From positions 2,418,001 to 2,482,000 of the forward strand of contig NZ_JACIBU010000001.1 in assembly GCF_014195485.1 (NCBI RefSeq): 64,000 bases of DNA, written 5' to 3'. The notes under the pieces were generated by a model. It did not search any database and had not been told where the DNA came from. It worked only from the letters and a program-made list of their open reading frames with translations. Shown here one piece after another: positions 11,205 through 44,557 of the stretch (the first letter of the stretch is position 1; each line of letters begins with the position of its first letter). This DNA is from Modestobacter versicolor. GTDB lineage: Bacteria; Actinomycetota; Actinomycetes; Mycobacteriales; Geodermatophilaceae. A program made the position numbers and the translations under genes.

Positions 11205-11241
11205 CCGGCCCGCCGGTCGGGCACCGGCGGGCCACCACCGG

Positions 11242-11550: not shown

Positions 11551-11630
11551 GAAGGCTCCTCAGCGGTGGTCGGGCACGGCTGCCCGGGTTCACCCTGGCG
11601 CCTACCCGTCCTGGGGACGACGATGCGGGC

Positions 11631-30688: not shown

Positions 30689-31939
30689 GTGTCGCAGTCC
30701 TCACGCCGCGTCGGAACCGCCATCGTCGGGCTCGGCGGTGCCGTCGCGACCACCGCCGTGGCCGGGCTGGAGCTGCTGCGGCTGGGCGCCGTCGCCGCCG
30801 ACGGCCTCCCCCTCGCCGGCCTGACCATCGGTGACCGGACCGTCGAGGAGGCCACCGGCCTCGCCGCCTACGACGACATCGTCGTCGGCGGCTGGGACCT
30901 CGACGGGTCCGACCTCTACAAGGCCGCCGAGCAGCACGGCGTGCTCGACGCCCGCCAGCTCCAGCAGGCCGAGCCGCGGCTGTCGACCATCACCCCCTGG
31001 CCCGCCGCCGGCGACGCCGACTTCTGCCGCAACGTGACCGGCGGCAACGTGGTGCTGGCCGAGGGGCGCCGGGCGCAGGTGGACGCCGTCCGCGCCGACC
31101 TCCGCCGGTTCCGCGAGGAGCAGCAGCTCGACGGGCTGGTGCTGCTCAACCTCGCCTCCACCGAGCGCTGGCCCGACCCCGCGGCGGCCTGCCTGCAGAC
31201 GCCGGAGGCCTTCGAGGCCGGGCTGGACGCCGATGACCGGTCGATCACCCCGGCCATGGTCTACGCCTACGCCGCCATCGTCGAAGGCGTCGGCTACGCC
31301 AACTTCACGCCCTCGCTGTCGGCCGACGTACCGGCGCTGGTCCAGCTGGCCGAGCAGCGCGGCGTCCCGATCGCGGGCAAGGACGGCAAGACCGGCCAGA
31401 CGATGATGAAGACGGTGCTCGCGCCGGCCTTCCGCAGCCGCGCGCTGAGGGTCGAGGGCTGGTACTCCACCAACATCCTGGGCAACCGCGACGGCCTGGC
31501 CCTCGACGACCCGGCGTCGCTGGAGAGCAAGCTGCAGACCAAGGGCAAGGTGCTCGACTCGATCCTCGGCTACACCGTCGAGGACCACGTCGTCCGGATC
31601 GACTACTACCGGCCCCGCGGTGACGAGAAGGAGGCCTGGGACGCCATCGACCTGGTCGGCTTCCTCGGCCAGCGGATGCAGATCAAGGTCGACTTCCAGT
31701 GCCGTGACTCGATCCTCGCCGCCCCGCTGGCGGTGGAGATCGTCCGGCTGACCGACCTGGCGCAGCAGCGCGGCGAGGGCGGCATCCAGCGGCACCTCGG
31801 CTGGTTCTTCAAGGCCCCCATCACCGCCGACGGCAGCACCCCCGAGCACGCGCTGCACCGGCAGGAGCAGGTGCTGCTGGACTGGCTGGGCAGCGGGGCA
31901 GCGCAGGCAGGGAGCGACGCCGTCCCGAGCTCCCGGTGA
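30689..31939 (+). CDS. Inositol-3-phosphate synthase-like protein (first gene of YcaO operon)
   Basis: 416 residues. The NAD-binding motif is VGTAIVGLGGAVATTAVAG (8-26), and the family core around residues 220-290 (AGKDGKTGQTMMKTVLAPAF, WYSTNILGNRDGLAL, SKLQTKGKVL) keeps the catalytic lysines and the LGNxDGxxL motif. The established reaction is glucose-6-phosphate to myo-inositol phosphate. It is longer than the mycobacterial Ino1 used for mycothiol and phosphatidylinositol, so it is probably a pathway-specific paralogue. GTG start with GAGGAG upstream. Its stop overlaps the next GTG. It would supply a cyclitol phosphate to the ten-gene operon. Confidence 0.88.
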   Translation: MSQSSRRVGTAIVGLGGAVATTAVAGLELLRLGAVAADGLPLAGLTIGDRTVEEATGLAAYDDIVVGGWDLDGSDLYKAAEQHGVLDARQLQQAEPRLSTITPWPAAGDADFCRNVTGGNVVLAEGRRAQVDAVRADLRRFREEQQLDGLVLLNLASTERWPDPAAACLQTPEAFEAGLDADDRSITPAMVYAYAAIVEGVGYANFTPSLSADVPALVQLAEQRGVPIAGKDGKTGQTMMKTVLAPAFRSRALRVEGWYSTNILGNRDGLALDDPASLESKLQTKGKVLDSILGYTVEDHVVRIDYYRPRGDEKEAWDAIDLVGFLGQRMQIKVDFQCRDSILAAPLAVEIVRLTDLAQQRGEGGIQRHLGWFFKAPITADGSTPEHALHRQEQVLLDWLGSGAAQAGSDAVPSSR

Positions 31940-32844
31940 CGGCGACGACGACCGGGCTGGCCACCCTCGGGGAGCTGCGGCCGCTGCTCGCCGAGATCGG
32001 CGACGCCAAGCGGGTGCGCACCGCCGGCCGGCCCGGCTCGCTCGCCGAGCAGGCCTTCGGCCGGGCGTGGGCGCGGCTGCTCGAGGGTGAGGACGCCGCG
32101 CCGGTCGCGCTGTCGGAGACCGCGGCCGCCGTGGCGCGGGCCCGGCTCGCCGGCATCGACGCCGAGTTGCTGCACACGGCCGGGCTGTCCGCCGACGAGG
32201 CGCAGGCGGTGCTGCGCCGCGCCTTCGACGAGGTCGCCGGGGCGGTCGACGGCGAGCTCGCGGCCCGCCTGCGGGCGGCGCTGCCCGCGCTGCGCCCGGC
32301 CGCACCCCCACCGGCTCTCGCGGTGGCCCTCAACGCCCAACCGCGGGCCGGGGCCACCAGCCCCGGGAAGCCCCGGGCCGTCGTCGAGCCCCCGGAGAGC
32401 CACGGCGACCACTGCCTCACCGTCGCCGTCTACGGCTGCCTGCTCGCGCCGCTGGTCGGTGCGGACCCGGTGGTCCCGTTCCTGGTCGGGTTGGCCCACC
32501 ACCTGCACAACGTGGTGCTCCCCGACGCCGGGTTCGCCGGGGAGGTGCTGCTCGGCGGTGCGCTGGACCGGGTGATCGGCACGCTGGAGGCGCGCGAGCT
32601 GGCCGGGCTGCCCCCGGCGCTGGCCGGCCGGCTGCGGGAGGTGCTGCTGCTGCGCGCCGACGCGGTCGCGCCGGAGTCGCAGGCCTTCCACGCGGCCGAC
32701 GTGCTCGACCGGGTGCTCCAGGTGCACCACCACGCCCGGGCCGCCGCGTTCACCGCGAGCCAGGCGCTCGACGAGCTGGAGCTGGTGCACGCCGGGCCGG
32801 TGCAGGCCTTCCACCTCGACGTCCTCGCCGCGGCCGGGCTGTGA
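31936..32844 (+). CDS. HD-like domain protein with HH in place of HD
   Basis: 302 residues. The N-terminal 120 residues are alanine-rich helices I do not recognise. The C-terminal part looks like an HD-superfamily helical domain: H156/H159 in ESHGDHCLTVA, H188-H189 in GLAHHLHN where the HD doublet is expected, and D255/D258 in FHAADVLDR. HD proteins are usually phosphohydrolases; a role in removing phosphate from the inositol-phosphate product is inference. With H189 instead of aspartate the metal site would be unusual. GTG at 31936 overlaps the upstream stop. Confidence 0.7.
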   Translation: MTATTTGLATLGELRPLLAEIGDAKRVRTAGRPGSLAEQAFGRAWARLLEGEDAAPVALSETAAAVARARLAGIDAELLHTAGLSADEAQAVLRRAFDEVAGAVDGELAARLRAALPALRPAAPPPALAVALNAQPRAGATSPGKPRAVVEPPESHGDHCLTVAVYGCLLAPLVGADPVVPFLVGLAHHLHNVVLPDAGFAGEVLLGGALDRVIGTLEARELAGLPPALAGRLREVLLLRADAVAPESQAFHAADVLDRVLQVHHHARAAAFTASQALDELELVHAGPVQAFHLDVLAAAGL

Positions 32845-32856
32845 GTGGACAGGCAG

Positions 32857-32922
32857 GTGAGCATCGCAGCGAGGGACGAGCGAGGAGCGGAGCCTGCCGC
32901 GGGAACGAACGGTGATGCTGTG
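32857..32922 (+). repeat. Intergenic coupling linker L1
   Basis: Starts GTGAGCATCGCAGCGAG, contains GAGCGAGGAGCGGAG, and ends at the GTGAGC start of the methyltransferase. It shares its opening 13 bases and general composition with linker L2 (42573-42493, minus strand). Here the linker is in frame with the methyltransferase, so initiation at 32845 or 32857 would add a short basic leader peptide. Confidence 0.6.
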
Positions 32923-33954
32923 AGCGCGTCGACGGTCACGACGGCCGGCGTGCCGGTCGTCGACGGCATCCCGTTCGCCCGCGCCGGGCGGGAGGAGCTC
33001 CGGGACCGGGTCGCCGGGCTGGTGGCCGACGGCGAGGTCGACCGGGCCCGGGTGGCGCTGCTCGCCGACTCCGACGACTGGTGGACCGAGCCGCCGCCCC
33101 CGGACGAGCAGCTCGCCCGGGTGCCGGCCGCGACGACCCTGCGCGAGGCGATGGCCCTGCTGGGCATGGGCCGGGTCGGCGACTACTTCGCCCACCGCTG
33201 GTCCGACCCCACGCACCTGGCCGTGCTGGCCCTGGTCGGGCAGCACTGGCCCGGCGACCGGCCGGTGGTCGACGTTGCCTGCGGCATCGGCACCCAGCTG
33301 CGCGAGCTCTCCCGCCGCGGGGTGCGCGACCTGCTCGGCCTGGACGTCGTGTGGTCCAAGCTCTGGCTCGCCCAGCGCTTCGTCTGCCCCGGGGCGCGGT
33401 ACGTCTGCGCCGACCTGACCGCCGCACCGGACCTGCACGTGCCGCAGCCGGCGTACGTCACCTGCCACGACGCCTTCTACTTCCTCCGCGACAAGCCGGC
33501 CGCCGCGGCCGCGATGCACGCGCTGGCCGGCCCCGGCGGCACGGTCGTCGTCGGCCACGCGCACGTCGCCGACCCGCACGGCGCGCCGCTGCCGCCCGAC
33601 GAGTACGCCCGGCTGCTGGGGGCCACCGTGCTCTACGACGACGCGGAGCTCACCCGCTCGCTCCTGGAGCGCCGCGCGCCCCGCCCGGCGCCGGCCGAGG
33701 AACTGGCCGGCAGCGAGGCGATCGGCCTGGTCGCCGGCGACCTCCGCGGGCCGGCACCGGCCGACCTGGGCGAGCCGCTCGGGCCGCTGCGCCCCAACCC
33801 GCTCTACGTCGACGGCGGGCTGCGCTGGCCCAGCGAGCGGTACGCCGCCGAGTACGGCCCGCGGTCGGGGCACCTGCCGGCGCGCTGGCCGGAGCCGCTG
33901 CCGGCCGACGCCGCCCGCCGCCGGCTGCTGGTCGACCTGCCGGAGCAGTGGTGA
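32920..33954 (+). CDS. SAM-dependent methyltransferase (class I)
   Basis: 344 residues from GTG at 32920. The Rossmann SAM-binding motif is VVDVACGIGTQLREL (about 116-130), with the acidic motif II in GLDVVWSKLWLA and motif IV near VTCHDAFYFLRDKP. Upstream in-frame GTGs at 32845 and 32857 would add the linker-encoded leader; I prefer 32920 because the domain begins soon after, though its ribosome binding site is weak. Acceptor unknown; in this operon the target is probably a sugar or cyclitol hydroxyl or amine. Its stop overlaps the next GTG. Confidence 0.83.
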   Translation: MSASTVTTAGVPVVDGIPFARAGREELRDRVAGLVADGEVDRARVALLADSDDWWTEPPPPDEQLARVPAATTLREAMALLGMGRVGDYFAHRWSDPTHLAVLALVGQHWPGDRPVVDVACGIGTQLRELSRRGVRDLLGLDVVWSKLWLAQRFVCPGARYVCADLTAAPDLHVPQPAYVTCHDAFYFLRDKPAAAAAMHALAGPGGTVVVGHAHVADPHGAPLPPDEYARLLGATVLYDDAELTRSLLERRAPRPAPAEELAGSEAIGLVAGDLRGPAPADLGEPLGPLRPNPLYVDGGLRWPSERYAAEYGPRSGHLPARWPEPLPADAARRRLLVDLPEQW

Positions 33955-34955
33955 CCGGCGTCGGGTGGGGCGTCGCCGGCTGCGGCTGGGTCGCCCGCGA
34001 CCACGCGCTGCCCGCGCTGCTGCAGGCGCCCGGCGCCCACCTGGTCGCGCTGCACGACCGCGACCCGGCCGCGATGGCCCGGATGCCGGTCGAGGCGCAG
34101 CGCACCACCGACCTGGCCGCGTTCCTGACCACCCCCGGGCTGGACGCGGTCTACGTCGCCGTGCCCAACTCCGCCCACCGGCAGGTCGTCGAGGCGGCGG
34201 CCGCCGCTGGGCTCGCGGTGCTCTGCGAGAAGCCGCTGGCCGCCGACGTCGCCGACGCGGAGGCCGCCGTCGCCGCGGCCGACCGGGCCGGCGTCCTGCT
34301 GGGCACCGCCTACGACCAGCGCTGGCACCCCGCGCACGTCCGGCTGCGCGAGCTGGTGCCCGAGCTGGGCACGGTCACCGCCGTCCGGGTCGTCTACTGC
34401 TGCTGGCTGCCGGCCGACTGGTCACCCGACGGCGGCCCGCACGACAACTGGCGGGTCGACCCCGCCCGGGCCGGCGGCGGCGCGGCGATCGACCTGGCAC
34501 CGCACGGCCTGGACCTGGCCGGCGTGCTGCTCGGCGAGGACGTCGTCGAGCTCTCCGCGCTGCTGCAGAACCGGGTGCAGGCCTACGGCGTCGACGACGG
34601 CGCGCTGCTGGCCGGCCGCACCGCGAACGGCGTGCTGGTCGACCTGCACGTCGCCTACAACTGCCCCGACGCCCTCCCCCGCCGCCGGCTCGAGGTGGTC
34701 GGCACCCGCGGCATGGCCGTCGCCGTCGACACGATGGGCCAGACCGCCGGTGGGTCGCTCACGCTGCTCCGCCCCGAGCCGGTCGACGTCCCGTTCGCCG
34801 GAACCGACCCGTTCACCGCCCAGTTCGCCGCGTTCAGCGCCGCGGTCGGGGGGACGGCGCCCTGGCCGTACCCGGCCGCCCGCGACCTCGCCCTGCACCG
34901 CCTGCTCGTGCAGGCCCTCGACACCGCCACCGACCGCACCGGAGTCGCCCCGTGA
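33951..34955 (+). CDS. Gfo/Idh/MocA-family NAD(P)-dependent oxidoreductase
   Basis: 334 residues. Dinucleotide-binding motif GVAGCGWVARDH (about 6-17), the family signature AVLCEKPLAADVADAE with catalytic lysine (about residue 94), and a C-terminal alpha/beta domain with YDQRWHPAHVRLRELV and GGGAAIDLAPHGLDLAGVLL. Members oxidise hydroxyls of sugars and inositols, so oxidation of a cyclitol to an inosose is a reasonable hypothesis here. GTG overlaps the methyltransferase stop; its own stop overlaps the next GTG. Confidence 0.9.
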   Translation: MTGVGWGVAGCGWVARDHALPALLQAPGAHLVALHDRDPAAMARMPVEAQRTTDLAAFLTTPGLDAVYVAVPNSAHRQVVEAAAAAGLAVLCEKPLAADVADAEAAVAAADRAGVLLGTAYDQRWHPAHVRLRELVPELGTVTAVRVVYCCWLPADWSPDGGPHDNWRVDPARAGGGAAIDLAPHGLDLAGVLLGEDVVELSALLQNRVQAYGVDDGALLAGRTANGVLVDLHVAYNCPDALPRRRLEVVGTRGMAVAVDTMGQTAGGSLTLLRPEPVDVPFAGTDPFTAQFAAFSAAVGGTAPWPYPAARDLALHRLLVQALDTATDRTGVAP

Positions 34956-35836
34956 GCACTGCCGACACCAACCCCTACCGCGGCCTGCTGCCGGACCTGC
35001 CCGCCTTCGCCTGCACCAACTGCGGGCACTGGCAGCGCTGGCCGGCACCGGGCCCGCAGGTCTGCCCGGTCTGCGCCGACGTGCGCAACGCGCTGCCCGA
35101 GCACGGCTTCGAGTTCGTCACGCCGAAGCAGGCCGACGAGCTGGTGACCGGCTTCTGGCGGCCCACCGCGGTCGCCGGGATCACCGAGTTCGGCACCGAG
35201 CCCCGGTTCGGGCTGGACAGCCGCGGCTGGGTGATCGAGACCGACGCCGGGCTGGTCGGCTTCGAGTGCGCCCCCTGGTACACGCCGGAGATGCTGGCCG
35301 AGCTGCGCCGGATGTCCGCGGCGAAGGGCGGGTTCGACGTGCTGGCCGCCAGCCACGTGCACGGCTACGGCGCGCTGTGGCAGCTGCAGCTCGAGCTGGA
35401 GCCGGCGACGGTCTGCGTCGGGGTGCGCGACCTGGAGTGGACCAAGGCCTTCCGGGTGACCTGGCCGGCCGACGACGTCCTCGAGCTCGCCCCCGACCTC
35501 ACCCTGCACCGCACCGGCGGCCACTTCGCCGGCCACTCGGTGCTGCACGACAGCCGGCGCGGCGTGCTGTTCTGCGGCGACTCGCTCAAGGTCGACCTGG
35601 ACGCCGACGGCAACCCGGTCGGCCTCTCCGCGCACAAGGCCTTCCACGCCCAGATCCCGCTGTCCCACGGCGAGCTGCGCGAGTACCTGGCGGTCGTCGC
35701 CGAGCTGGACTTCGAGGCCGTGGCCACGCCGTTCGAGCTGGTCCGGGGCGTGACCACCGACCACGTCGTCCACCTGGTGCAGCGGCTGCTGTCCGGCCGG
35801 CCGGACGCCGCCCCGATCGCGCTGGCCGAGCTGTGA
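34952..35836 (+). CDS. Zn-ribbon plus metallo-beta-lactamase-fold protein
   Basis: 294 residues. An N-terminal rubredoxin-like knuckle C21-x2-C24...C38-x2-C41 is followed by an MBL-like domain. The first metal motif reads H135-V-H137-G-Y-G, so the D and H that normally complete HxHxDH are missing, while H191, H195 (GGHFAGHS) and D210 (FCGDSL) keep the look of the remaining sites. It may bind a single metal or act non-hydrolytically, for example in sulfur or oxygen chemistry. It is encoded directly before YcaO with GTGA overlaps on both sides, suggesting it works with it. Confidence 0.8.
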   Translation: MSTADTNPYRGLLPDLPAFACTNCGHWQRWPAPGPQVCPVCADVRNALPEHGFEFVTPKQADELVTGFWRPTAVAGITEFGTEPRFGLDSRGWVIETDAGLVGFECAPWYTPEMLAELRRMSAAKGGFDVLAASHVHGYGALWQLQLELEPATVCVGVRDLEWTKAFRVTWPADDVLELAPDLTLHRTGGHFAGHSVLHDSRRGVLFCGDSLKVDLDADGNPVGLSAHKAFHAQIPLSHGELREYLAVVAELDFEAVATPFELVRGVTTDHVVHLVQRLLSGRPDAAPIALAEL

Positions 35837-37278
35837 GCACCTCGCAGCGCTACCTGGACTCCTTCCCGGCGGGCGTGCAGGAGTTCGCGATCGAGGGGCT
35901 CGACGTCCTCGACGTGCCGCTGCACAGCGCCTTCCTCCCCTCCTCGCCGGCGCACCCCGGCGGCAGCGGGCTGGGCTACGGCGCGACCCGCGAGGAGGCC
36001 CGCACCGGCGCGCTCGGCGAGATGGCGGAGATGGCGCTGTCCATCCGCGCCCACGAGGGCCTCGACCGGGTGCACGGCTCGTACCGCGAGCTCGCCCGCA
36101 CCGAGGGCCGCGACCGGGTGGCCGACCCGCGCACGCTCTGCCTGGAGGCCGGCAGCGCCTACGACGACGACCGGCCGCTGCAGTGGCTGCCGATGACCCG
36201 CACCCGGGACGGCGAGCAGGTGCTGGTCCCGGCCGAGCTGGTGGTCTCCGGGCCCGAGGAGCTGCCCGGCGACCCACCGCCCGGCGGCTGGCTCACCACG
36301 GTCCTCACCAACGGGCAGGGCGCGGCCTTCGACGCCGACCGGGCGGTCACCCACGCGCTGCTGGAGCTGCTGCAGCGCGACGGCAACGCCACCACCTTCC
36401 GGGCGATGGACCAGGGCGTGGTCGTCGACCTGGCCGGGCTGCACGACCCGGACGCGCTGGCGCTGCTCGACCGGCTCGACGCCGCGGGCATCGACGTCCT
36501 GGTCAAGCTGGCGAGCACCGAGCACGGGGTGGTCGACGTGTACGCCGTCGGCTGCTCGCGGGACAGCTCGGAGCCCGCCCCGATGATGGTCACCGCCTGC
36601 GGGGAGGCGGCCTCGCCCGACCGGGACGCCGCCGTCCGCAAGGCGCTGTTCGAGTTCGCCGCCGCCCGCAGCCGCAAGGCGTTCATGCACGGCCCGCTGG
36701 ACGCCGTCGCCGCCGCCACCCCGCCGGGCTACCTGGACCAGTGGCTGCAGGGGCACCCGCCCGAGCGGATGGTCGAGGAGGACCGTGCGCTGCAGGCGAT
36801 GCTCGGCTGGACCCGGCTGGGCACCGACCGGCTGACCGAGCTGCTGCGCGGCTCGGTGCTCTCGCACCGCCGCACGGTCGCCTTCACCGAGCTGCCCACC
36901 GGTGGCGGTGACCCGGCCGGGGTGCTGGCCGCCGAGGGCCTGGACGTGCTGGTCGACCTGCAGCTCTCGCTGGGCGAGGCGGTCGCGGCCAAGGTGGTCG
37001 TGCCCGGGCTGGAGGCCGAGACGATGTCCTACGGCCGGATCGGTGAGCACGGCGTGCGGCGGCTGCTGGAGCGCGGCGACGCCCCGGGCGGCGGGCTCGC
37101 CGCCGTGGGCGCCGACCCGGGTGGCTGGGCGCGGGTGCACCTCACGGCGGAGGCCGAGGAGCGGCTGGGCGGGCCGGCCTGGTTCGACCGGGCGGGTGCC
37201 GACCGCGTGGTCGGCGAGCTGTACGCGCTGTACCGCGAACCCGGCCGGCACGTCGCGGCGCTGGCGGTGGCGTCATGA
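35833..37278 (+). CDS. YcaO-domain ATP-dependent backbone-activating enzyme
   Basis: 481 residues, with one YcaO domain making up most of the protein. The ATP/Mg-binding helices follow the family pattern: E63/E66 in GALGEMAEMALS, E178/R182/D183 in ALLELLQRDG, and E274/R279 in RKALFEFAAARSR. YcaO enzymes phosphorylate an amide oxygen to allow azoline, thioamide or amidine formation. No E1-like or ocin-ThiF protein, no TfuA, no TOMM dehydrogenase and no precursor peptide are encoded in the operon, and no C-terminal proline-rich motif is present. Substrate is therefore probably not a classical RiPP. GTG overlaps the MBL-protein stop; its stop overlaps the next ATG. Confidence 0.9.
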   Translation: MSTSQRYLDSFPAGVQEFAIEGLDVLDVPLHSAFLPSSPAHPGGSGLGYGATREEARTGALGEMAEMALSIRAHEGLDRVHGSYRELARTEGRDRVADPRTLCLEAGSAYDDDRPLQWLPMTRTRDGEQVLVPAELVVSGPEELPGDPPPGGWLTTVLTNGQGAAFDADRAVTHALLELLQRDGNATTFRAMDQGVVVDLAGLHDPDALALLDRLDAAGIDVLVKLASTEHGVVDVYAVGCSRDSSEPAPMMVTACGEAASPDRDAAVRKALFEFAAARSRKAFMHGPLDAVAAATPPGYLDQWLQGHPPERMVEEDRALQAMLGWTRLGTDRLTELLRGSVLSHRRTVAFTELPTGGGDPAGVLAAEGLDVLVDLQLSLGEAVAAKVVVPGLEAETMSYGRIGEHGVRRLLERGDAPGGGLAAVGADPGGWARVHLTAEAEERLGGPAWFDRAGADRVVGELYALYREPGRHVAALAVAS

Positions 37279-38105
37279 GCCTGCGCTACGCCTACAACAC
37301 CAACGGGCTGACGTCGCACCGGCTGGACGACGCGCTGTCGTTCCTGGCCGACACCGGCTACGCGGGCGTGGCGCTGACCCTGGACGTGCACCACCTCGAC
37401 CCGTTCGCGGAGGACGCGTTCGCCCAGGCCGAGCGGGTGCGCGCCCGCTGCGACGCCCTCGGCCTGGGTGTCGTCGTGGAGACCGGCGCGCGCTTCCTGC
37501 TCGACCCGCGGGTCAAGCACGAGCCCACCCTGGTCAACCCGACCCCGGAGGGCCGGGACCGCCGGCTGGCCTACCTGCGGCTGGCCTGCGACCTGGCCGA
37601 GGTGCTGCAGGCCGAGGCGGTCAGCTTCTGGGCCGGCGTGCCGCAGCCCGGCGTCGACCGCGACCAGGCCCGGGGGTGGCTGGTCGACGGTGTCCGGGCG
37701 CTGGTCGACAGCCACGGCGGCCGGTCCTACGCGCTGGCCGTCGAGCCCGAGCCGGGGATGCTCGTCGAGGACGCCGACGACTGGGCGGCGCTCGCCGCCG
37801 AGGTGCCGGGCCTGACCCTGGCGCTGGACACCGGGCACTGCGTGGTGAGCGGCCGGTACGCCCCCGAGGAGGCGGTCACCGCCTTCGCCGCGCAGCTGGG
37901 CACGGTCGCCGTCGAGGGGATGCGCCGCGGCGTGCACGACCACCTGCCCCTCGACGAGGGCGACGTCGACCTGCCCGCGGTGCTCGCCGCGCTGCGCGGC
38001 ACCGGCTACGACCGGCTGGTGACGCTCGAGCTGTCCCGCGACGGCCACCGGGCGCACCAGATGGTGCCCCGCTCGATCGAACTGCTCAGGAAGGCCGAGG
38101 GATGA
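37275..38105 (+). CDS. Sugar phosphate isomerase/epimerase-like TIM barrel
   Basis: 276 residues, AP-endonuclease-2/xylose-isomerase fold. Metal-ligand candidates occur on successive strands: VSFWAG, AVEPEPGMLVE (glutamate), LALDTGHC (Asp and His), VHDHLPLDEGDVDL and TLELSRDGHR (glutamate). Relatives include IolE and IolI, which dehydrate or epimerise inososes, fitting the inositol synthase and Gfo/Idh genes of the operon. ATG overlaps the YcaO stop and its stop overlaps the GT4 start. Substrate unproven. Confidence 0.85.
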   Translation: MSLRYAYNTNGLTSHRLDDALSFLADTGYAGVALTLDVHHLDPFAEDAFAQAERVRARCDALGLGVVVETGARFLLDPRVKHEPTLVNPTPEGRDRRLAYLRLACDLAEVLQAEAVSFWAGVPQPGVDRDQARGWLVDGVRALVDSHGGRSYALAVEPEPGMLVEDADDWAALAAEVPGLTLALDTGHCVVSGRYAPEEAVTAFAAQLGTVAVEGMRRGVHDHLPLDEGDVDLPAVLAALRGTGYDRLVTLELSRDGHRAHQMVPRSIELLRKAEG

Positions 38106-39310
38106 GGATCTGCTTCGTCAGCCGCCGCTACTGGCCGGCGGTCAGCGGCATGAGCGTCTACGCCGAGAACCTGCTCCGCGAGCTGGTCGCCCTGGGCCAC
38201 GAGGTGGTGCTGGTCAGCCAGTACCGCGACGACGAGGCGGGCACCCGGGTCTACGGCGGTGGCCCGCCGCCCGCCGACCGGGTGCCGGCCGGGGTCGAGG
38301 TGCACGCGCTGCCCAGCCGCGGCGAGACCGTCGTCCCGGCCGACTGGGAGGGCGACATCGAGGAGATCGTGCGCACCGTCGTCGGCCTGCACGCCGAGCG
38401 GCCCTTCGACGTGCTGCACGCCCAGTACGGCTACCCGCCGGGCCTGGCGGTGCTCGAGGCGTCGCGGCGGACCGGGGTGCCGAACCTGGTGAGCATCCAG
38501 GGCGGCGACGGCCACTGGGTCGGCACCTGCTGCGGCACGCACGCCGAGGCCATGCGCACGGTGCTCGACCACGCCGGCGCGGCGCTGATCGGCAGCGCCA
38601 GCTTCCGCGACGAGGTGGTGGGCAACCTCGGCACCGACCCGGCCCGCTTCACGATCGTGCCGGGCGCGACCGACACCGGCCGGTTCACCCCGGGCGACCG
38701 CCCGCTGGGCAGCCTCGGCGACCCGCCGGTGCTGCTCTTCCACGGCCGGGTCGACCGGCGCAAGGGCGTGCTCGACCTGCTCGAGGCGCTGCCGGACGGC
38801 GTCCGGCTCGTCGTCTCCGGCATCGGCCCGGACCTGGACGAGGCGAGGGCGCGCGCCGACGGCCGCACCACCTTCCTCGGCTACGTGCCGCCCGACGAGG
38901 CGCCGGCGGTGTACCGCACGGCCGACGTGTTCGTCAGCCCCACCTACAGCGAGGGGTTCAGCAACACCCTGCTGGAGGCGATGGCCAGCGGGCTGCCCAC
39001 GGTGAGCACCGACAGCGTCGGCGTCGTCGACTGCCTGCGGCACGAGGAGAACGGGCTGCTGCACGAACCCGGCGACGTCGCCGGGCTGCGCAAGGAGCTG
39101 GACCGGCTGCTGTCCGACGCCGAGCTGCGCAGCCGGCTGGCCACCACCGCGCTGGAGGAGGTCCGCCGGCTCTACTCGTGGCCGGTGCTGGCCCGCAGCA
39201 TCGACGAGGTCTGCACCGGGCTGGCCGGCACCGCCCCGGACCTGGACTGGGAGCTGCCCGCGACGGCCGACCCGACGTGCCGGTTCCGGGCCGCGGCGCA
39301 CCTGCTCTGA
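38102..39310 (+). CDS. GT4 family glycosyltransferase (MshA/PimB-like)
   Basis: 402 residues, GT-B fold. N-terminal RRYWPAVSGMSVYAENLLREL with the glycine-rich acceptor loop, then LLFHGRVDRRKGVLDLLEAL and the donor-binding EGFSNTLLEAMASGLPTVSTD (ExxGxxxxEA type, about 287-295). GT4 members include MshA, which joins GlcNAc to inositol phosphate in mycothiol synthesis. Followed directly by a PIG-L deacetylase as in MshA/MshB logic, it may glycosylate the cyclitol product. An unusual GTCCGTHAE pair of cysteines lies near residue 142. ATGA overlap with the upstream gene. Confidence 0.88.
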   Translation: MRICFVSRRYWPAVSGMSVYAENLLRELVALGHEVVLVSQYRDDEAGTRVYGGGPPPADRVPAGVEVHALPSRGETVVPADWEGDIEEIVRTVVGLHAERPFDVLHAQYGYPPGLAVLEASRRTGVPNLVSIQGGDGHWVGTCCGTHAEAMRTVLDHAGAALIGSASFRDEVVGNLGTDPARFTIVPGATDTGRFTPGDRPLGSLGDPPVLLFHGRVDRRKGVLDLLEALPDGVRLVVSGIGPDLDEARARADGRTTFLGYVPPDEAPAVYRTADVFVSPTYSEGFSNTLLEAMASGLPTVSTDSVGVVDCLRHEENGLLHEPGDVAGLRKELDRLLSDAELRSRLATTALEEVRRLYSWPVLARSIDEVCTGLAGTAPDLDWELPATADPTCRFRAAAHLL

Positions 39311-40029
39311 TGCGCGTGCTCGCGGTCAGCCCGCACCTGGACGACGCCGCGTTCTCCGCCGGCGCGACCCTCGCCGCGCTGGCCGGCGCGGGGCACGAGG
39401 TCACCGTGGTCACCTGCTTCACCCGCAGCGTGCCCGACCCCACCGGGTTCGCGCTGGCCTGCCAGCTGGACAAGGGCCTGCCCGCCGACGCCGACTACAT
39501 GGCGCTGCGCCGGGCGGAGAACACCGCGGCGACGGCGGTGCTCGGCGTCGCCGCGGTCGACCTCGACCTGCCCGAGGCGCCGCACCGCGGCTACACCAGC
39601 GCCCCCGACCTCTTCGCCGGCGTCCACCCCGGCGACGACGTGTGGCGCGAGGTCGCCGACCGGCTGGCCGGGCTCACCGCGGACCTCTGGCTGGCGCCGC
39701 AGGCCCTGGGCGGCCACGTCGACCACGTCCAGGTGCTGCGCGCGGTCGCCGCGCTGGACCGCCCGACGCTGTGGTGGCGGGACAGCCCCTACGTGCTCCG
39801 CGAGCCCGACGCGGCGCCCGGGGCCGACCTGCCCGGCGGGCTGTCCCCGGTCGAGCTGCCGCAGGACGCCGGGCGGCGGGCGGCCGCCTGCGCCTGCTAC
39901 GCCACCCAGCTGGGCTTCCAGTTCGGCGGGGAGGCGGGGATGCGCGCGGCGCTGGCCGGGTCGCCGGAGCCGCTGCTGGCCGGTCCTGCCGCGCTCGCCG
40001 TGCTGGCCGGCGCGGAGGCCGGGGCATGA
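39310..40029 (+). CDS. PIG-L/LmbE-family (MshB-like) deacetylase
   Basis: 239 residues. Zn-site motif VSPHLDDAAFSAG (H9, D11, D12, where AHPDDE is the usual form) at the N-terminus and GGHVDHVQ (H136, D138, H139) near the middle are both intact. PIG-L enzymes remove acetyl from GlcNAc groups in glycosylphosphatidylinositol and mycothiol pathways, exposing an amine. Its start overlaps the GT4 stop (TGATG), so the pair is strongly coupled. The exposed amine would be a good site for methylation or amide formation by other operon enzymes. Confidence 0.9.
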   Translation: MRVLAVSPHLDDAAFSAGATLAALAGAGHEVTVVTCFTRSVPDPTGFALACQLDKGLPADADYMALRRAENTAATAVLGVAAVDLDLPEAPHRGYTSAPDLFAGVHPGDDVWREVADRLAGLTADLWLAPQALGGHVDHVQVLRAVAALDRPTLWWRDSPYVLREPDAAPGADLPGGLSPVELPQDAGRRAAACACYATQLGFQFGGEAGMRAALAGSPEPLLAGPAALAVLAGAEAGA

Positions 40030-41009
40030 CCTGGCTGGTCACCGGCGGTGCCGGCTACATCGGGGCGCACGTCGTGCACGCGATGGTGGCGGCCGGGGAG
40101 CGGGTGGTCGTGCTCGACGACCTCTCCACCGGGGACGCCGGCCGGCTCGACGGCCTGCCCGCGGTGCCGCTGGTCGTCGGTTCGGTCCGCGACCGGGGGC
40201 TGGTCCGCCGGGTGCTGCGCGAGCACGGGGTCCGGGGCGTGGTGCACGTCGCGGGCAAGAAGCAGGTCGCCGAGTCCGTCGCCGACCCGCTCACCTACTA
40301 CGCCGAGAACGTGGCGGGCCTGGTCGCCCTGCTGGAGGGCTGCCGGGCGAAGGGCGTCACCCGGTTCGTGTTCTCCAGCAGCGCCGCCGTCTACGGCACG
40401 CCCGACGTCGACCCGGTGCCCGAGGACGCGCCGTGCCGGCCGCTGTCGCCCTACGGGCGCACCAAGCTGGCCGGCGAGTGGCTGCTGCGCGACTGCGCCG
40501 CCGCGTGGGGGCTGGCCGCCACCTCGCTGCGGTACTTCAACGTCGCCGGCGCCGCGCACCCCCGGCTCGGCGACACCGGCGCCGCCAACCTCGTGCCGCT
40601 GGTCTTCGCCGCCCTGGACGCCGGCCACCCGCCGGTGGTCCTCGGCGACGACCACGCCACGCCGGACGGCACCGGCGTGCGGGACTACGTGCACGTCGCC
40701 GACGTCGCGGCCGCCCACCTCGCCGCGGCCCGGGCGCTGACCGCCGGCTCCCCCGGGGGCACCTACAACGTCGGCCGTGGGGTCGGCTGCAGCGTGCGCG
40801 ACGTGCTGCGGGTGGTCGCCGAGGTGACCGGTGCGGACACCACGCCCACGGTGGCCGGCCGCCGGCCCGGCGACCCGGCGAGCGTGGTCGCCGCGGTCGG
40901 CCACGCCCGGCGCGAGCTCGGCTTCACCGCCCGGCGCGACCTGCACGACATGGTCGGCAGCGCCTGGACCGCCTGGCGCCGGCTGTCGGCCGACGCCGTC
41001 CGGGGCTAG
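40026..41009 (+). CDS. UDP-glucose/NDP-sugar 4-epimerase family protein
   Basis: 327 residues, extended SDR. NAD motif WLVTGGAGYIGAHV (about 3-16), catalytic serine in FSSSAAVYG and tyrosine/lysine in SPYGRTKLAGEWL, then LRYFNVAGA and YNVGRGVGCSVRDVLR. GalE homologues interconvert UDP-glucose/UDP-galactose or the GlcNAc forms. As last gene of the operon it probably prepares the sugar donor for the GT4 enzyme. Its TAG stop shares the palindrome CTAG (41006-41009) with the converging ATP-grasp gene, leaving no space for a separate terminator. Confidence 0.88.
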   Translation: MTWLVTGGAGYIGAHVVHAMVAAGERVVVLDDLSTGDAGRLDGLPAVPLVVGSVRDRGLVRRVLREHGVRGVVHVAGKKQVAESVADPLTYYAENVAGLVALLEGCRAKGVTRFVFSSSAAVYGTPDVDPVPEDAPCRPLSPYGRTKLAGEWLLRDCAAAWGLAATSLRYFNVAGAAHPRLGDTGAANLVPLVFAALDAGHPPVVLGDDHATPDGTGVRDYVHVADVAAAHLAAARALTAGSPGGTYNVGRGVGCSVRDVLRVVAEVTGADTTPTVAGRRPGDPASVVAAVGHARRELGFTARRDLHDMVGSAWTAWRRLSADAVRG

Positions 41010-42496
41010 GCCGGGGGCAGCACCCAGGTGTCCTTGCTGCCGCCGCCCTGGCTGGAGTTGACCAGCAGCGACCCCTCGGCGAGCGCCACCCGGGTCAGCA
41101 GCGCCGGCAGCGCCTGGGTCGTCGACCCGGCCACGGCGAACACCCGCAGGTCGGCCCGCCGCGGCACGACCAGGCCGTCGACGACGGTGGGCACCGTGGA
41201 GAAGTCGACCGGTTCCTGGGCGACGAACCGGTGCGGGGTCGCGAGCACCTCGGCCTGCAGCTCGGCCAGCTCGGCGGCCGAGCAGAGCGGCCCGAACACC
41301 ACCCCCTGGCCGCCGTACCCGTCGACCGGCTTGACGACCAGCTCGTGCAGCCGGTCGCGCGCCGCGGCCAGGTCGTCGTCGTCGGCCAGCAGCCAGGTGG
41401 GCACGGTGGCCAGCACCGGCTCCTCGCCGAGGTAGAAGCGGATCATCTCCGGCACGTAGCGGTAGGTGGCCTTGTCGTCGGCCACCCCGTTGCCCGGCAC
41501 GTTGGCCAGCGCCAGCTTCCCGGCGCGCACCGCCTCGCCGAGCAGCACGTCGACCGGGGTGCCGCTGGGGGTCAGGTGGGACCCCAGGTCGGCCTCGTCG
41601 AACCGCCGGTACAGGACATCGACCGGCACCCGCTCGCCGTCGACCTGCACCGCCACCCCGCCGGCCGGCGTCGGCCACAGCGTGTCCGGGGTGACGACCG
41701 GGATGCCCAGCGCCTCGGCGAGCAGCTGGTGCTCGAACCAGGCCGAGTTGTGCGGGCCGTCGGTGAGCAGCCCGAGCTGCGGCACCCCGGGGCAGCCGGG
41801 CGGGGCCGCGTCGGCGAGCGCGGCCCGGAGCAGGGCGATCGACTCCCCCGGGTCGACCAGCCCGGCGGCCTCGGCGTCGGCGTAGAGCTGCGGCAGCGCG
41901 GCCCGGCCGCTGTCCCGGTTGGTGAGCGCGTACCCGATCCCCGACGGCACCCGCAGGTTGTCCTCGAGCACCACCCAGCCGTCGGGCCCGTGCAGCAGGT
42001 CCAGCCCCGAGACGGTGATCCGCGGCTGACCGGGTGCGGCCAGGCCGACGGCGCCCGGCCGGAGCCCGGGGCTGGCGGCCACGATCCACGGCGGCACGAT
42101 CCCGGCGCGGACCACCTCCGGGTGCTGGTCGGGGTCGGTGCGCCGCCGGCCGGCCGGCCGGTAGACGTCGGCGAGGAAGGCGTTGAGCGCCCGGGTGCGC
42201 TGCTCGACGCCGGCGGACAGGTGCGCCCAGTCGGCGGCCGACAGCACCCGCGGCACTGGGCAGAGCGGGAACGGGCGCTCGACCAGCCGGCCGTCGACGA
42301 AGGCCCCGAAGACGACGCCGCGCATCCGGCGCTCCTGGGCGATCGCGCCGACGACGGCGGCGACCCCCACCCCGCCGAGACCGTCGAGCACCTGCGCGAC
42401 GGGCCCGTAGGCCTCGCGCACCGAGCCGTCCGGGCCCACCGCCTCGTCCCCGGCGGAACCGGGGTACCGGGCGAAGACGCCGGCGCTCCCGGTCAT
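41006..42496 (-). CDS. Circularly permuted type 2 ATP-grasp protein
   Basis: 496 residues of the DUF404/DUF407 group. Markers are RALNAFLADVYRPA, WVVLEDNLRVPSGIGYAL, LANVPGNGVADDKATYRYVPEMIRFYLGEE and VVKPVDGYGGQGVVFGP, ending LLVNSSQGGGSKDTWVL. ATP-grasp enzymes join carboxylates to amines; members of this group have been predicted to make small peptides, often beside alpha-E (DUF403) and transglutaminase-like genes, neither of which is here. ATG at 42496 overlaps the stop of the L2 mini reading frame. It is the last gene of the three-gene minus-strand set. Confidence 0.9.
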   Translation of the reverse strand: MTGSAGVFARYPGSAGDEAVGPDGSVREAYGPVAQVLDGLGGVGVAAVVGAIAQERRMRGVVFGAFVDGRLVERPFPLCPVPRVLSAADWAHLSAGVEQRTRALNAFLADVYRPAGRRRTDPDQHPEVVRAGIVPPWIVAASPGLRPGAVGLAAPGQPRITVSGLDLLHGPDGWVVLEDNLRVPSGIGYALTNRDSGRAALPQLYADAEAAGLVDPGESIALLRAALADAAPPGCPGVPQLGLLTDGPHNSAWFEHQLLAEALGIPVVTPDTLWPTPAGGVAVQVDGERVPVDVLYRRFDEADLGSHLTPSGTPVDVLLGEAVRAGKLALANVPGNGVADDKATYRYVPEMIRFYLGEEPVLATVPTWLLADDDDLAAARDRLHELVVKPVDGYGGQGVVFGPLCSAAELAELQAEVLATPHRFVAQEPVDFSTVPTVVDGLVVPRRADLRVFAVAGSTTQALPALLTRVALAEGSLLVNSSQGGGSKDTWVLPPA

Positions 42497-42586: not shown

Positions 42587-44446
42587 TCACAGCCATCGAT
42601 CGAACCACTCGGCCACCCGCTCCGACAGGTGCAGCAGGTTGTCCCGTCCCACGATCGTGTGACCCTCGCCCCTGAGCAGCAGCAGCTCCGCGGGCGCCCC
42701 GAGCGCGGTGAGCTCCTGGTGCGCCTGGATCGACTCCAGCACCGGGACGTTGGTGTCCCGGTCGCCGTGGCACAGCAGCACCGGGGCGGTGAGCCGGTCG
42801 AGCGCCGTCATCGGGCTGATCGACGCGAGCATGTCCCGGTCGGTGACCGGGTCCCCGTACTCGGTGACCGAGGCGGCCGCCATCCACGGCTCGGTGCCGG
42901 CGAAGAAGGTGCGCAGGTCGCTCATCCCGGCCAGCGTGGCGCCGGCGGCGAACAGCTCCGGCCAGCGGGTGAGCGCCACCAGCGCCAGGTAGCCGCCGTA
43001 GGACCAGCCGTGCGCGCCGATCTGACCGGGCAGCGCGATGCCGGCCTGCACCAGGTGCTCGACGGTGGCCGGGACGTCGTCGAAGGAGGCCTCCCGGGCG
43101 CCGAGGTCGTCGGCGGCCATGAACGCCGCCCCGTGACCGCCGGAGCCGCGGACGTTCGGCGCGAAGACGGTCAGCCCGGCGGCGACGAGCGACTGGGCGA
43201 CCGGGTGGTAGCCCGCCCGCTCCTGCCCCTCCGGGCCGCCGTGGAAGCTGACCACGGTGCGGTTCGGCCCGTGCACCCCCGGCGGGACGTAGAGCCAGCC
43301 GTCGAGCTCGGTGCCGTCGTGCGCCAGGTACCGGCAGTGCTCCGGGGTCACCAGCAGGTGCGGGTCGGGCCGGCGCGGCGTCGAGGGCAGCGGCTGCGGC
43401 TCCGCGGCGCCGTCCAGGGAGACCAGCCACAGCGAGCGCGGCGCGAGCGGGCCGGTGAGCTCGGCCAGCAGGGTGCGGCCGTCGCCGGACAGCGACCAGC
43501 CCGGCATCACCGGCTGCGGCAGCGGGACGGCGCGCACCAGGCCGCCGTCGGCGAGGTCGCGGAGCTCCAGCTCGGTGCTGCCGTCGGCGTTCCAGACGCA
43601 GACGACCGTGCCGTCGGCGCGCACCGCGTAGGCGTCGAGGTCGGCGTCCGGCCGGGACACCAGCACCTCCGCCGGGCCCGGCACGCGCTCCGGGCTCAGC
43701 GGCACCCGGACCAGCCCGGTGCGGTCGCTGCGGGGAAGTCCCGGACGGCCCGGCAGGCCGGCGCGCAGGTAGACCGCGCCCAGGTCGGGGGCGAACCGGC
43801 CGTCCTCGGACGCCGCCCCACCGGGCGAGCCCAGCGGGATGACGCGCCGCTGCTCGCCGCTGGCGACGTCGACGAGCACGACGTGCCGGTGCCCGCGCGG
43901 CCCGCGGCGGGCCAGCACGGTGCGCTCGTCGGCGGAGACAGCGGTGACCGAGAGGAAGCCGCCGGAGGCCAGCGTGCGCCGGGCACCGCTGACCACGTCG
44001 ACCAGGACGACGTCGGCGCCGGGGCCGTCGCCGGGCGCGATCGAGCAGACGTAGTGGCCGGAGCCGGCGGTCCAGCCCCCGGCGAAGACCGTGGACCGGG
44101 GGTCGTCACCGGCGACCAGGTGCCGGTCGGTGCCGTCGGGGCGGACCGCCCACAGCTGGGCGCAGATCGAGCCGCCGGGGCTGACCAGGTAGGCCAGCCA
44201 CTCGCCGTCCGGCGACCAGGCGACCGAGACGACCTCCTCCTCCGCACCGGACAGCACCGCCGGCGGCGTCTGCTGGTCCAGGGTGGCGACCTCCAGGCGC
44301 GGCAGGCCGGAGCGGTCGCTCACGTACGCCACCCGGTCGCCGGTCGGCGCGAGCGCGGGGCACCAGGCGCCGGAGGCGCCGGCGATCTCGGCGAGGGCCA
44401 GGCGGACGCCGGTGGGCAGGCCCGTGGTGCGCAGTGCGTCGGTCAT
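42587..44446 (-). CDS. S9 family prolyl oligopeptidase-type serine peptidase
   Basis: 619 residues: N-terminal beta-propeller region (about 30-370, with TolB-like repeats such as VAWSPDGEWLAYLVSPGG) and a C-terminal alpha/beta hydrolase. Catalytic serine S482 in GWSYGGYLAL, the aspartate in HGDRDTNVP and H596 in GEGHTIVG complete the triad. No signal peptide, so it is probably intracellular and acts on small peptides. ATG at 44446 has a strong GAGGAGGTGAC ribosome binding site; upstream in-frame ATG at 44509 lacks one. It may trim or recycle the peptide made by the flanking amidotransferase and ligase. Confidence 0.9.
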   Translation of the reverse strand: MTDALRTTGLPTGVRLALAEIAGASGAWCPALAPTGDRVAYVSDRSGLPRLEVATLDQQTPPAVLSGAEEEVVSVAWSPDGEWLAYLVSPGGSICAQLWAVRPDGTDRHLVAGDDPRSTVFAGGWTAGSGHYVCSIAPGDGPGADVVLVDVVSGARRTLASGGFLSVTAVSADERTVLARRGPRGHRHVVLVDVASGEQRRVIPLGSPGGAASEDGRFAPDLGAVYLRAGLPGRPGLPRSDRTGLVRVPLSPERVPGPAEVLVSRPDADLDAYAVRADGTVVCVWNADGSTELELRDLADGGLVRAVPLPQPVMPGWSLSGDGRTLLAELTGPLAPRSLWLVSLDGAAEPQPLPSTPRRPDPHLLVTPEHCRYLAHDGTELDGWLYVPPGVHGPNRTVVSFHGGPEGQERAGYHPVAQSLVAAGLTVFAPNVRGSGGHGAAFMAADDLGAREASFDDVPATVEHLVQAGIALPGQIGAHGWSYGGYLALVALTRWPELFAAGATLAGMSDLRTFFAGTEPWMAAASVTEYGDPVTDRDMLASISPMTALDRLTAPVLLCHGDRDTNVPVLESIQAHQELTALGAPAELLLLRGEGHTIVGRDNLLHLSERVAEWFDRWL

Positions 44447-44557
44447 GTCACCTCCTCGGCAGGTCACGGCGGTGCGGGGCACCCGGTGGACGACGTCGTC
44501 CCCCGGCATCGGCAGTGTGGTCCCGACCCCTGACGCGACGGTGCGCCCGGGGTGGCG

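What the first reader, a model, noticed from the sequence alone, without database searches (positions are those of the whole stretch)
30689..41009. Ten-gene YcaO operon combining inositol-phosphate synthesis, glycosyl transfer and deacetylation
Ten plus-strand genes, all but one junction with overlapping stop/start codons, encode inositol-phosphate synthase-like, HD-like, methyltransferase, Gfo/Idh, Zn-ribbon/MBL, YcaO, IolE/IolI-like TIM barrel, GT4, PIG-L and GalE-like proteins. Order and families suggest a pathway: make a cyclitol phosphate, dephosphorylate and oxidise it, rearrange it, glycosylate it, deacetylate to a free amine, then methylate and use YcaO to activate an amide or carboxylate-derived group. 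The GT4/PIG-L pair copies MshA/MshB logic. I know of no described pathway with this set. Seen: the genes and overlaps. Known: family chemistry. Inferred: pathway and product.
Basis: partly seen in the sequence, partly recalled or inferred. Interest (0 to 1): 0.95.

Follow-up and report, generated by a model that had tools for sequence, protein, structure and literature searches.

The report
Nine-gene YcaO cyclitol-glycoside pathway
Nine tightly packed genes, found in the same order in bacteria of three phyla (sometimes with one gene missing), are predicted to build an unknown small molecule from inositol and an amino sugar, with a YcaO enzyme that would act on that molecule instead of on a peptide, its usual kind of target.

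Summary
Ten same-strand genes lie at 30689-41009 and 8 of 9 junctions overlap. The conserved unit, however, is the first NINE genes (INO1, HD, methyltransferase, Gfo/Idh, Zn-ribbon/MBL, YcaO, TIM barrel, GT4, PIG-L). GalE is a neighbour: in two Modestobacter genomes without the cluster it sits alone at the same site. All nine genes occur in order in 33 of 44 relative loci, in Actinomycetota and on a Roseomonas plasmid; eight-gene versions lie on Methylobacterium and Hymenobacter plasmids. HD, GT4 and YcaO searches of 72,556 plasmids each hit the same four. One homologue fuses MBL to YcaO. No precursor peptide fits inside the operon. The genome's mycothiol INO1 and MshA lie elsewhere. In 7 of 16 loci outside Geodermatophilaceae, unrelated DNA-lesion-repair genes are neighbours, a post-hoc lead. 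Best reading: a dedicated small-molecule pathway, its product likely an inositol-derived amino-sugar glycoside modified by YcaO; the chemistry is inferred. Boldest reading: an inositol-based, mycosporine-like UV screen. Ten searches of an open-access paper library showed no description in the listings seen.

The parts
30689..31939 (+). g1, inositol-3-phosphate synthase (INO1) family; dedicated copy
   Evidence: PF07994 217.1 bits and PF01658 120.6 bits; best solved relative 7nwr, E 2.7e-85; lysine/aspartate-rich core (G233-K234-T235-G236, K281, K285, D312, K314, D321, K333, D340) invariant in 15 aligned sequences. Scores 49.1 against the 638 cut-off of the mycothiol INO1 model.
31936..32844 (+). 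g2, HD-superfamily phosphohydrolase fold (YfbR/HDDC2-like) with an extra N-terminal helical part; predicted cyclitol phosphatase
32845..33954 (+). g3, class-I SAM methyltransferase with N-terminal extension; optional (absent in Hymenobacter and in one Rubrobacteraceae locus). Start may be 32950.
   Evidence: PF13649 30.4 bits, cut-off 27; absent in L109 and L126.
33951..34955 (+). g4, Gfo/Idh/MocA oxidoreductase; predicted cyclitol or sugar dehydrogenase
   Evidence: PF01408 and PF22725; E94-K95-P96, D182 and H186 invariant in 17. Best solved relatives are 1,5-anhydrofructose reductases; inositol dehydrogenases rank lower.
34952..35836 (+). g5, zinc-ribbon-like N-terminus (C21, C24, C38, C41) plus metallo-beta-lactamase fold with altered HxHxxG motif; partner of YcaO
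35833..37278 (+). g6, YcaO ATP-dependent carbonyl-activating enzyme
   Evidence: PF02624 166.9 bits, cut-off 25.7. E63, E66, E178, Q181-R182-D183, K270, E274 and R281 invariant in 17. Best solved relative: archaeal YcaO MJ1094.
37275..38105 (+). g7, xylose-isomerase-like TIM barrel (IolE/IolI/CbiR type)
   Evidence: PF01261 112.2 bits. Only solved relative at E<=1e-3 is IolE. Candidate metal ligands E157, D185, H188, H221 and E252 invariant in 17.
38102..39310 (+). g8, GT4-family glycosyltransferase
   Evidence: PF00534 107 bits. E284, E292, R216 and K221 invariant in 16. MshA model 60.9 against cut-off 462.5.
39310..40029 (+). g9, PIG-L family de-N-acetylase
   Evidence: PF02585 58.3 bits. 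H9, D11, D12, H136, D138 and H139 invariant in 15. Best solved relatives are glycopeptide deacetylases Dbv21 and Orf2; MshB follows at E 0.007.
40026..41009 (+). g10, GalE: co-directional neighbour, not part of the conserved unit
   Evidence: TIGR01179 327.6 bits, over the 262.3 cut-off. Present alone at the same chromosomal site in two genomes lacking the cluster.

Best explanation
The nine genes at 30689-40029 are one conserved operon that is likely a dedicated pathway for an inositol-derived, amino-sugar-bearing small molecule, in which YcaO would spend ATP to activate a carbonyl of that molecule rather than of a peptide. SHOWN: gene content, order, conserved active-site residues, spread over three phyla, the MBL-YcaO fusion, and the separate mycothiol INO1 and MshA. 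INFERRED, in order: INO1 makes inositol 3-phosphate from glucose 6-phosphate; the HD protein removes the phosphate; the Gfo/Idh enzyme oxidises the ring to an inosose; the IolE/IolI-like TIM barrel dehydrates or isomerises the keto-ring; GT4 attaches an N-acetylhexosamine (donor likely UDP-GlcNAc); PIG-L frees the amine; the methyltransferase caps a hydroxyl (optional); and YcaO, usually with the MBL partner, phosphorylates an amide-like or vinylogous carbonyl so that an amine (likely the freed one) or sulfur can replace the oxygen. As I saw no exporter, resistance gene or regulator conserved across the bacterial families compared, the product is likely kept in the cell as a protectant.
For: All nine genes in order on one strand in 33 of 44 relative loci; the other 11 are contig ends, single-gene losses or the YcaO displacement in G149. 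HD gene: 20 of 298 genomes of the order, one of them weak (G215); all 19 strong ones are among the 31 of 298 YcaO-positive genomes, and all 19 carry eight or nine of the genes (ten of them read through public contigs matched by length). HD gene in 7 of 396 genomes of the phylum: the window plus six of one family, three of them named through as Rubrobacter, all six with the cluster. Same four of 72,556 plasmids for HD (E 1e-5), GT4 (E 1e-40) and YcaO (E 1e-20). Fusion of g5 to g6 in P0196, whose MBL part is 40% identical to g5. Active-site motifs invariant. Goekera lacks the cluster INO1 but keeps the mycothiol-type INO1, as expected if both make the same inositol phosphate. Own genome has separate mycothiol INO1 and MshA. 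Genes overlap or abut, leaving no room for a precursor peptide inside.
Against: No product, substrate or reaction was observed. The Gfo/Idh enzyme is nearest to anhydrofructose reductases, not inositol dehydrogenases, among solved structures. GT4 and PIG-L are too general to fix donor or acceptor. I know of no YcaO shown to act on a carbohydrate (recalled). The HD motif is altered (HH) and the MBL motif has lost the DH pair, so either may have changed chemistry. YcaO is freely exchanged: the Pseudonocardia MAG carries a Geodermatophilus-like one, and in G089 and G149 it is 18-22 and 13-17 points more divergent from Geodermatophilaceae than the other genes, with G149 holding it 7 kb from g1. 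Twelve of 31 YcaO-positive genomes in the order lack the HD gene, and these YcaOs nest inside the cluster YcaO tree. Six Geodermatophilus/Blastococcus loci share a divergent neighbour block with an ABC-transporter ATPase, so export is not excluded there. A peptide substrate encoded elsewhere is not excluded.
Confidence: 0.45

Rival explanations
1. YcaO acts on a peptide or protein encoded elsewhere, making a thioamide or azoline, and the other genes add a sugar or cyclitol to it.
For: All characterised YcaOs I recall act on peptides or proteins. The best solved relative is the archaeal YcaO MJ1094; the best NCBIfam model is the SagD peptide cyclodehydratase and the second the McrA thioamidation enzyme, both below cut-off.
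Against: No PqqD/RRE, ThiF or TfuA domain among the ten proteins; no precursor gene can hide inside overlapping genes; eight co-inherited cyclitol, sugar and small-molecule enzymes have no role in known peptide pathways (recalled). McrA is absent from such aerobic bacteria (recalled).
Confidence: 0.15
2. A sulfur compound: a mycothiol-like pseudodisaccharide in which the MBL protein delivers sulfide and YcaO installs a thioamide or thiol, serving as a redox or radiation protectant.
For: INO1 + GT4 + PIG-L is the mycothiol gene logic (recalled). YcaO's best solved relative is MJ1094, of the McrA thioamidation type (the link between the two is recalled). MBL is fused to YcaO, a place comparable to TfuA's in thioamide systems (PMC13063428, passages seen). 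Hymenobacter has bshB1 next to the cluster.
Against: MBL is absent from both Methylobacterium plasmids. No cysteine ligase or sulfurtransferase in the operon. Mycothiol-family models score far below cut-off.
Confidence: 0.2
3. An aminocyclitol antibiotic of the kasugamycin kind, with amidine formation by YcaO.
For: Inositol plus an amino sugar plus a glycine imine is kasugamycin's make-up (PMC8869731, abstract and passages).
Against: No aminotransferase, UDP-GlcNAc 2-epimerase, resistance gene or exporter among the nine. Distribution over three phyla without self-resistance fits a protectant better.
Confidence: 0.1
4. An envelope glycolipid or polysaccharide building block rather than a soluble metabolite.
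For: GT4 and PIG-L families also build GPI-like and envelope glycans (recalled). Roseomonas has an MdoH-type glucosyltransferase overlapping the PIG-L gene, and both Methylobacterium plasmids have an LPG-synthase-type membrane protein near by.
Against: No membrane anchor, flippase, polymerase or lipid-linked family among the nine.
Confidence: 0.1

Closest known systems
Mycothiol biosynthesis (INO1, MshA, MshB)
   Same: Same three families: inositol-phosphate synthase, GT4, PIG-L deacetylase.
   Different: All three score far below the mycothiol models. The genome has its own mycothiol INO1 and MshA elsewhere. YcaO, MBL, TIM barrel, Gfo/Idh and HD have no mycothiol counterpart (recalled).
Kasugamycin biosynthesis
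   Same: Product logic: inositol joined to an amino sugar that carries an amidine-like group (PMC8869731, abstract and passages).
   Different: The Kas cluster has KasQ epimerase and KasN glycine oxidase, and no deacetylase was found in it (PMC8869731, passages). 'YcaO' occurs 0 times in that paper.
Mycosporine-like amino acid / gadusol pathways
   Same: Ring plus oxidoreductase plus methyltransferase plus ATP-driven amination of a vinylogous acid (recalled). Would be functionally analogous.
   Different: No dehydroquinate-synthase-like cyclase and no ATP-grasp above cut-off among the ten. The ring would come from inositol.
YcaO-TfuA thioamidation and TOMM/RiPP clusters
   Same: YcaO enzyme, here with an adjacent and once fused hydrolase-like partner.
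   Different: No TfuA, RRE or ThiF among the ten; no room for a precursor inside the operon.
Inositol catabolism (IolG, IolE, IolI)
   Same: Gfo/Idh plus IolE/IolI-type TIM barrel pair.
   Different: Neither passes the iol equivalog cut-offs. Combined with synthesis and glycosylation genes, not with IolD/IolC.

Membership tests
YcaO superfamily | YcaO domain with ATP/Mg ligands | tested here: met
   PF02624 166.9 bits, cut-off 25.7; acidic and QRD motifs invariant in 17; that these bind ATP/Mg is recalled.
YcaO RiPP / thioamidation cluster | RRE, ThiF or TfuA partner next to YcaO | tested here: not met
   No such Pfam family among the ten proteins.
YcaO RiPP / thioamidation cluster | precursor peptide gene in or beside the operon | tested here: inconclusive
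   No room inside (junctions of 0 or overlapping). Very short flanking frames and distant loci were not scanned.
Mycothiol biosynthesis | INO1, MshA, MshB equivalogs | tested here: not met
   49.1 vs 638, 60.9 vs 462.5, 19.8 vs 224.35 bits; true INO1 and MshA elsewhere.
Mycothiol biosynthesis | MshC-type cysteine ligase in the pathway unit | tested here: not met
   No such domain in the ten proteins. Mycothiol genes need not be clustered (recalled).
Kasugamycin-type aminoglycoside | UDP-GlcNAc 2-epimerase and PLP aminotransferase in the cluster | tested here: not met
   Neither family among the ten proteins. That these define the kind is recalled in part; KasQ from PMC8869731.
Mycosporine-like amino acid pathway | DHQS-like cyclase and ATP-grasp ligase | tested here: not met
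   None above cut-off in the ten proteins. The adjacent circularly permuted ATP-grasp gene is on the other strand and also present where the cluster is absent.
Mycosporine-like amino acid pathway | UV-absorbing product | not testable with these tools
   No metabolite data.
Bacterial INO1 family | both INO1 Pfam domains and conserved lysines | tested here: met
HD phosphohydrolase | HD fold | tested here: met
HD phosphohydrolase | canonical H...HD...D motif | tested here: not met
   HH in place of HD in all 19 aligned.
Dinuclear metallo-beta-lactamase hydrolase | HxHxDH motif | tested here: not met
   HxHxxG in the 14 aligned.

The most novel reading that the evidence does not exclude
The operon makes an inositol-based, glycosylated, mycosporine-like UV screen. 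Inositol is oxidised and dehydrated to a cyclohexenone like a hydroxymethyl-free gadusol, optionally O-methylated, and YcaO, doing on a vinylogous amide the amide-activation chemistry known on peptides, aminates it with the freed amino sugar. It would be the missing genetic basis of the UVA-absorbing compounds of phyllosphere Methylobacterium, and a shared sunscreen of Geodermatophilaceae, Rubrobacter, Hymenobacter and Roseomonas.
Probability: 0.2. Interest if true: 0.95.

Novelty: categorically new. Interest (0 to 1): 0.82.

Why it matters
If the reading is right, YcaO chemistry leaves the peptide world and enters carbohydrate/cyclitol metabolism, and a metabolite shared by bacteria known for radiation, desiccation and sunlight tolerance (recalled ecology) has gone unseen. 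The operon is compact, is on plasmids in two Methylobacterium, and has a single diagnostic gene (YcaO), so the question is directly testable. It also gives genome annotators a nine-gene signature for proteins now called hypothetical, 'YfbR', or 'ribosomal protein S12 methylthiotransferase accessory factor' (names seen).

Tried and rejected
Ten-gene operon including GalE: rejected by the empty-site comparison. GalE-like genes are still near some clusters, so a supporting role in sugar-nucleotide supply is not excluded.

Mycothiol operon: rejected. Anti-phage defence: only one weak methyltransferase hit, 33.5 bits. Virus-borne: one scan of IMG/VR confirmed no relative among 25 pattern matches.

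UV/repair link. For: spore photoproduct lyase (SPL) genes and uvsE near the Roseomonas cluster; an SPL-type gene 2.5 kb from g1 in Rubrobacter marinus; a UDG-family gene next to PIG-L in M. aquaticum and M. bullatum; an Fpg-type glycosylase next to PIG-L in R. radiotolerans and R. indicoceani; an AlkZ-like glycosylase 1.2 kb from g1 in L070. That is 7 of the 16 loci outside Geodermatophilaceae. Against: an SPL-type gene is near the cluster in only 1 of the 10 genomes that have one (in five others it is about 55 kb to 1.6 Mb away, in four on another contig), and 5 of 15 have none. None of the 28 Geodermatophilaceae loci matched the six query proteins; neither did 16 control loci. The window itself has a relative of the Fpg-type gene, but 19 kb from g1 (10395-11201). 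The queries were chosen after seeing the loci, only some flanking genes were scanned for domains, the two Rubrobacter and the two Methylobacterium cases are not independent, and no background rate was measured. Treated as suggestive only.

Papers: YcaO + inositol + PIG-L gave 0 papers; YcaO + mycosporine 0. In the other eight searches no listed title or abstract start describes this gene set; two searches listed 15 of 288 and 20 of 23 papers. I looked inside four papers only, by term passages. The library is open-access only. Yoshida et al. 2017 on UVA-absorbing compounds of Methylobacterium is not held; I saw it only as a reference and as a sentence and reference in a review (PMC12573535).

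Distribution in Methylobacterium: of the 120 best relatives of its HD protein (of 1386), every row that names an organism says Methylobacterium or Methylorubrum, except one Beijerinckiaceae MAG. The cluster was read only in two plasmids (L125, L127).
Full report

THE UNIT IS NINE GENES. Of 44 relative loci of 7 kb or more that hold at least three of the genes, 33 have all nine in the same order on one strand. The other eleven are: contig ends (L035, L047, L055, L059); a short contig that also lacks the methyltransferase between its neighbours (L109); two overlapping contigs of one genome with YcaO displaced (L112, L113); and single losses, namely INO1 in Goekera (L054), MBL in two Methylobacterium plasmids (L125, L127) and the methyltransferase in Hymenobacter (L126). 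GalE is a neighbour: in Modestobacter genomes without the cluster it sits alone between serC and a circularly permuted ATP-grasp gene (G225, G182), or is missing so that those two genes are adjacent (G039, G048). In Modestobacter the nine genes therefore behave as a clean insertion or deletion, present in 3 of the 11 genomes of the genus in the sample.

SPREAD. In a 298-genome sample of the order, the HD gene is found in 20, one of them weak and with no other clear cluster gene near by (G215). The 19 strong ones are all among the 31 YcaO-positive genomes, and all 19 carry eight or nine of the genes; ten of these were read through public contigs matched by length. In a 396-genome sample of the phylum the HD gene is found in 7: the window and six members of one family. 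All six carry the cluster (one on a 7.6-kb contig). On plasmids, the HD (E 1e-5), GT4 (E 1e-40) and YcaO (E 1e-20) searches each hit 4 of 72,556 records, and these are the same four: Methylobacterium aquaticum MA-22A, M. bullatum, Roseomonas haemaphysalidis and Hymenobacter volaticus (regions). That is three phyla. A quick tree of six concatenated proteins puts Hymenobacter with Rubrobacter, and Alphaproteobacteria with the Geodermatophilaceae side by a very short branch. With the plasmid location this points to horizontal transfer; the tree is rooted at its midpoint for drawing only.

YcaO AND ITS PARTNER. YcaO is a canonical YcaO, closest among solved structures to the archaeal YcaO MJ1094. 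It is exchanged more than its neighbours: in the Pseudonocardia MAG it is 73-77% identical to Geodermatophilaceae while its neighbouring genes are 53-67% identical to the window's; in G089 and G149 it is 18-22 and 13-17 points more divergent from Geodermatophilaceae than the other genes; in G149 it has left the operon for a place 7 kb from g1. Twelve YcaO-positive genomes of the order lack the HD gene; their YcaOs nest inside the cluster YcaO tree and sit by other genes, in ten of the twelve loci with an ABC-transporter gene set in the same 20 kb. The MBL protein has four invariant N-terminal cysteines and an altered metal motif, HxHxxG, in all 14 aligned. One public homologue is a single 790-residue MBL-YcaO protein, 40% identical to g5 over its first part, and it groups with the Hymenobacter YcaO. 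MBL is nonetheless missing from both whole Methylobacterium plasmids (their chromosomes were not searched), so it looks like a helper, not a strict requirement.

WHAT IT LIKELY DOES. Shown: families, motifs, order. Inferred: INO1 and HD give inositol; Gfo/Idh and the IolE/IolI-like barrel oxidise and dehydrate or isomerise it; GT4 and PIG-L add and deacetylate an N-acetylhexosamine; the methyltransferase is optional tailoring; YcaO activates a carbonyl of the resulting molecule. Three facts support a small-molecule substrate. No peptide gene fits in the operon. No RRE, ThiF or TfuA is present. The co-inherited genes are mostly sugar- and cyclitol-type enzymes. The loss of the cluster INO1 in Goekera, which keeps the mycothiol-type INO1, is what one expects if both enzymes supply the same inositol phosphate. 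Weak points: Gfo/Idh is nearer to anhydrofructose reductases, GT4 and PIG-L do not define donor or acceptor, the HD motif is HH, and six Geodermatophilus/Blastococcus loci share a divergent block with an ABC-transporter ATPase upstream, so export is not excluded there.

A UV OR DNA-DAMAGE CONNECTION? In 7 of the 16 loci outside Geodermatophilaceae, unrelated lesion-repair genes lie near the cluster: two spore-photoproduct-lyase genes and uvsE (Roseomonas), an SPL-type gene (R. marinus), UDG-family genes directly after PIG-L (both Methylobacterium), Fpg-type glycosylases directly after PIG-L (R. radiotolerans, R. indicoceani), and an AlkZ-like glycosylase (L070). None of 16 control loci and none of 28 Geodermatophilaceae loci matched these six queries. 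The queries were picked after the fact, and SPL-type genes are near the cluster in only 1 of the 10 genomes that have one, so this is a lead. Methylobacterium is reported to contain polar UVA-absorbing compounds (Yoshida et al. 2017, not held; seen only as a reference and a review sentence; 'polar' is recalled from its abstract). Relatives of the cluster's HD protein are widespread in that genus. From enzyme logic (recalled: oxidised, methylated, ATP-aminated cyclohexenones are the core of mycosporines), I propose as the boldest reading an inositol-based mycosporine-like screen with YcaO in the role of the ATP-grasp ligases.

NOVELTY. It fails defining features of mycothiol, kasugamycin, MAA and YcaO-TfuA/RiPP pathways, and ten paper searches showed no description in the listings seen. 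I rate it categorically new as a pathway, with product unknown.

Noticed in passing
L126 (Hymenobacter volaticus plasmid), 11951-12999 and 16220-17451; L105 (Rubrobacter marinus), 10951-11951: Gfo/Idh (both) and GT4 (Hymenobacter only) are split into two frames, so these copies may be decaying or carry sequencing errors.
   Followed up: no
L060, L062-L069, L071-L073: A free-standing YcaO, 44-50% identical to g6, lies without the other eight genes in 12 genomes of the order; in ten of these loci a solute-binding protein and two ABC permeases lie in the same 20 kb (domains checked in L068 only).
   Followed up: partly
L112 and L113 (genome G149): YcaO is missing between MBL and the TIM barrel; a YcaO lies 7 kb from g1 between GT61- and GT2-type glycosyltransferase genes. 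The two contigs overlap at g2-g4 and may be strain variants.
   Followed up: partly
L128 19042-20604: In Roseomonas an MdoH-type glucosyltransferase overlaps the PIG-L gene and extends the operon, followed by two spore-photoproduct-lyase-family genes.
   Followed up: no
L126 18386-19120: bshB1 (bacillithiol deacetylase) stands convergently next to the cluster's PIG-L gene on the Hymenobacter plasmid.
   Followed up: no
P0196: A 790-residue MBL-YcaO fusion protein from an unnamed ENA contig of 35.6 kb; its gene neighbourhood could not be read.
   Followed up: partly
L038, L039, L044, L048, L049, L053, upstream of g1: A divergent block with an ABC-transporter ATPase is shared by these six Geodermatophilus/Blastococcus loci; it may be chromosomal context or an exporter.
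   Followed up: partly
window 41009-42496, 42590-44509, 44561-46342 (- strand): Circularly permuted ATP-grasp, prolyl-oligopeptidase-like and asparagine-synthase-like genes downstream; the first two also flank the empty site in cluster-free Modestobacter, so they are chromosomal context.
   Followed up: yes
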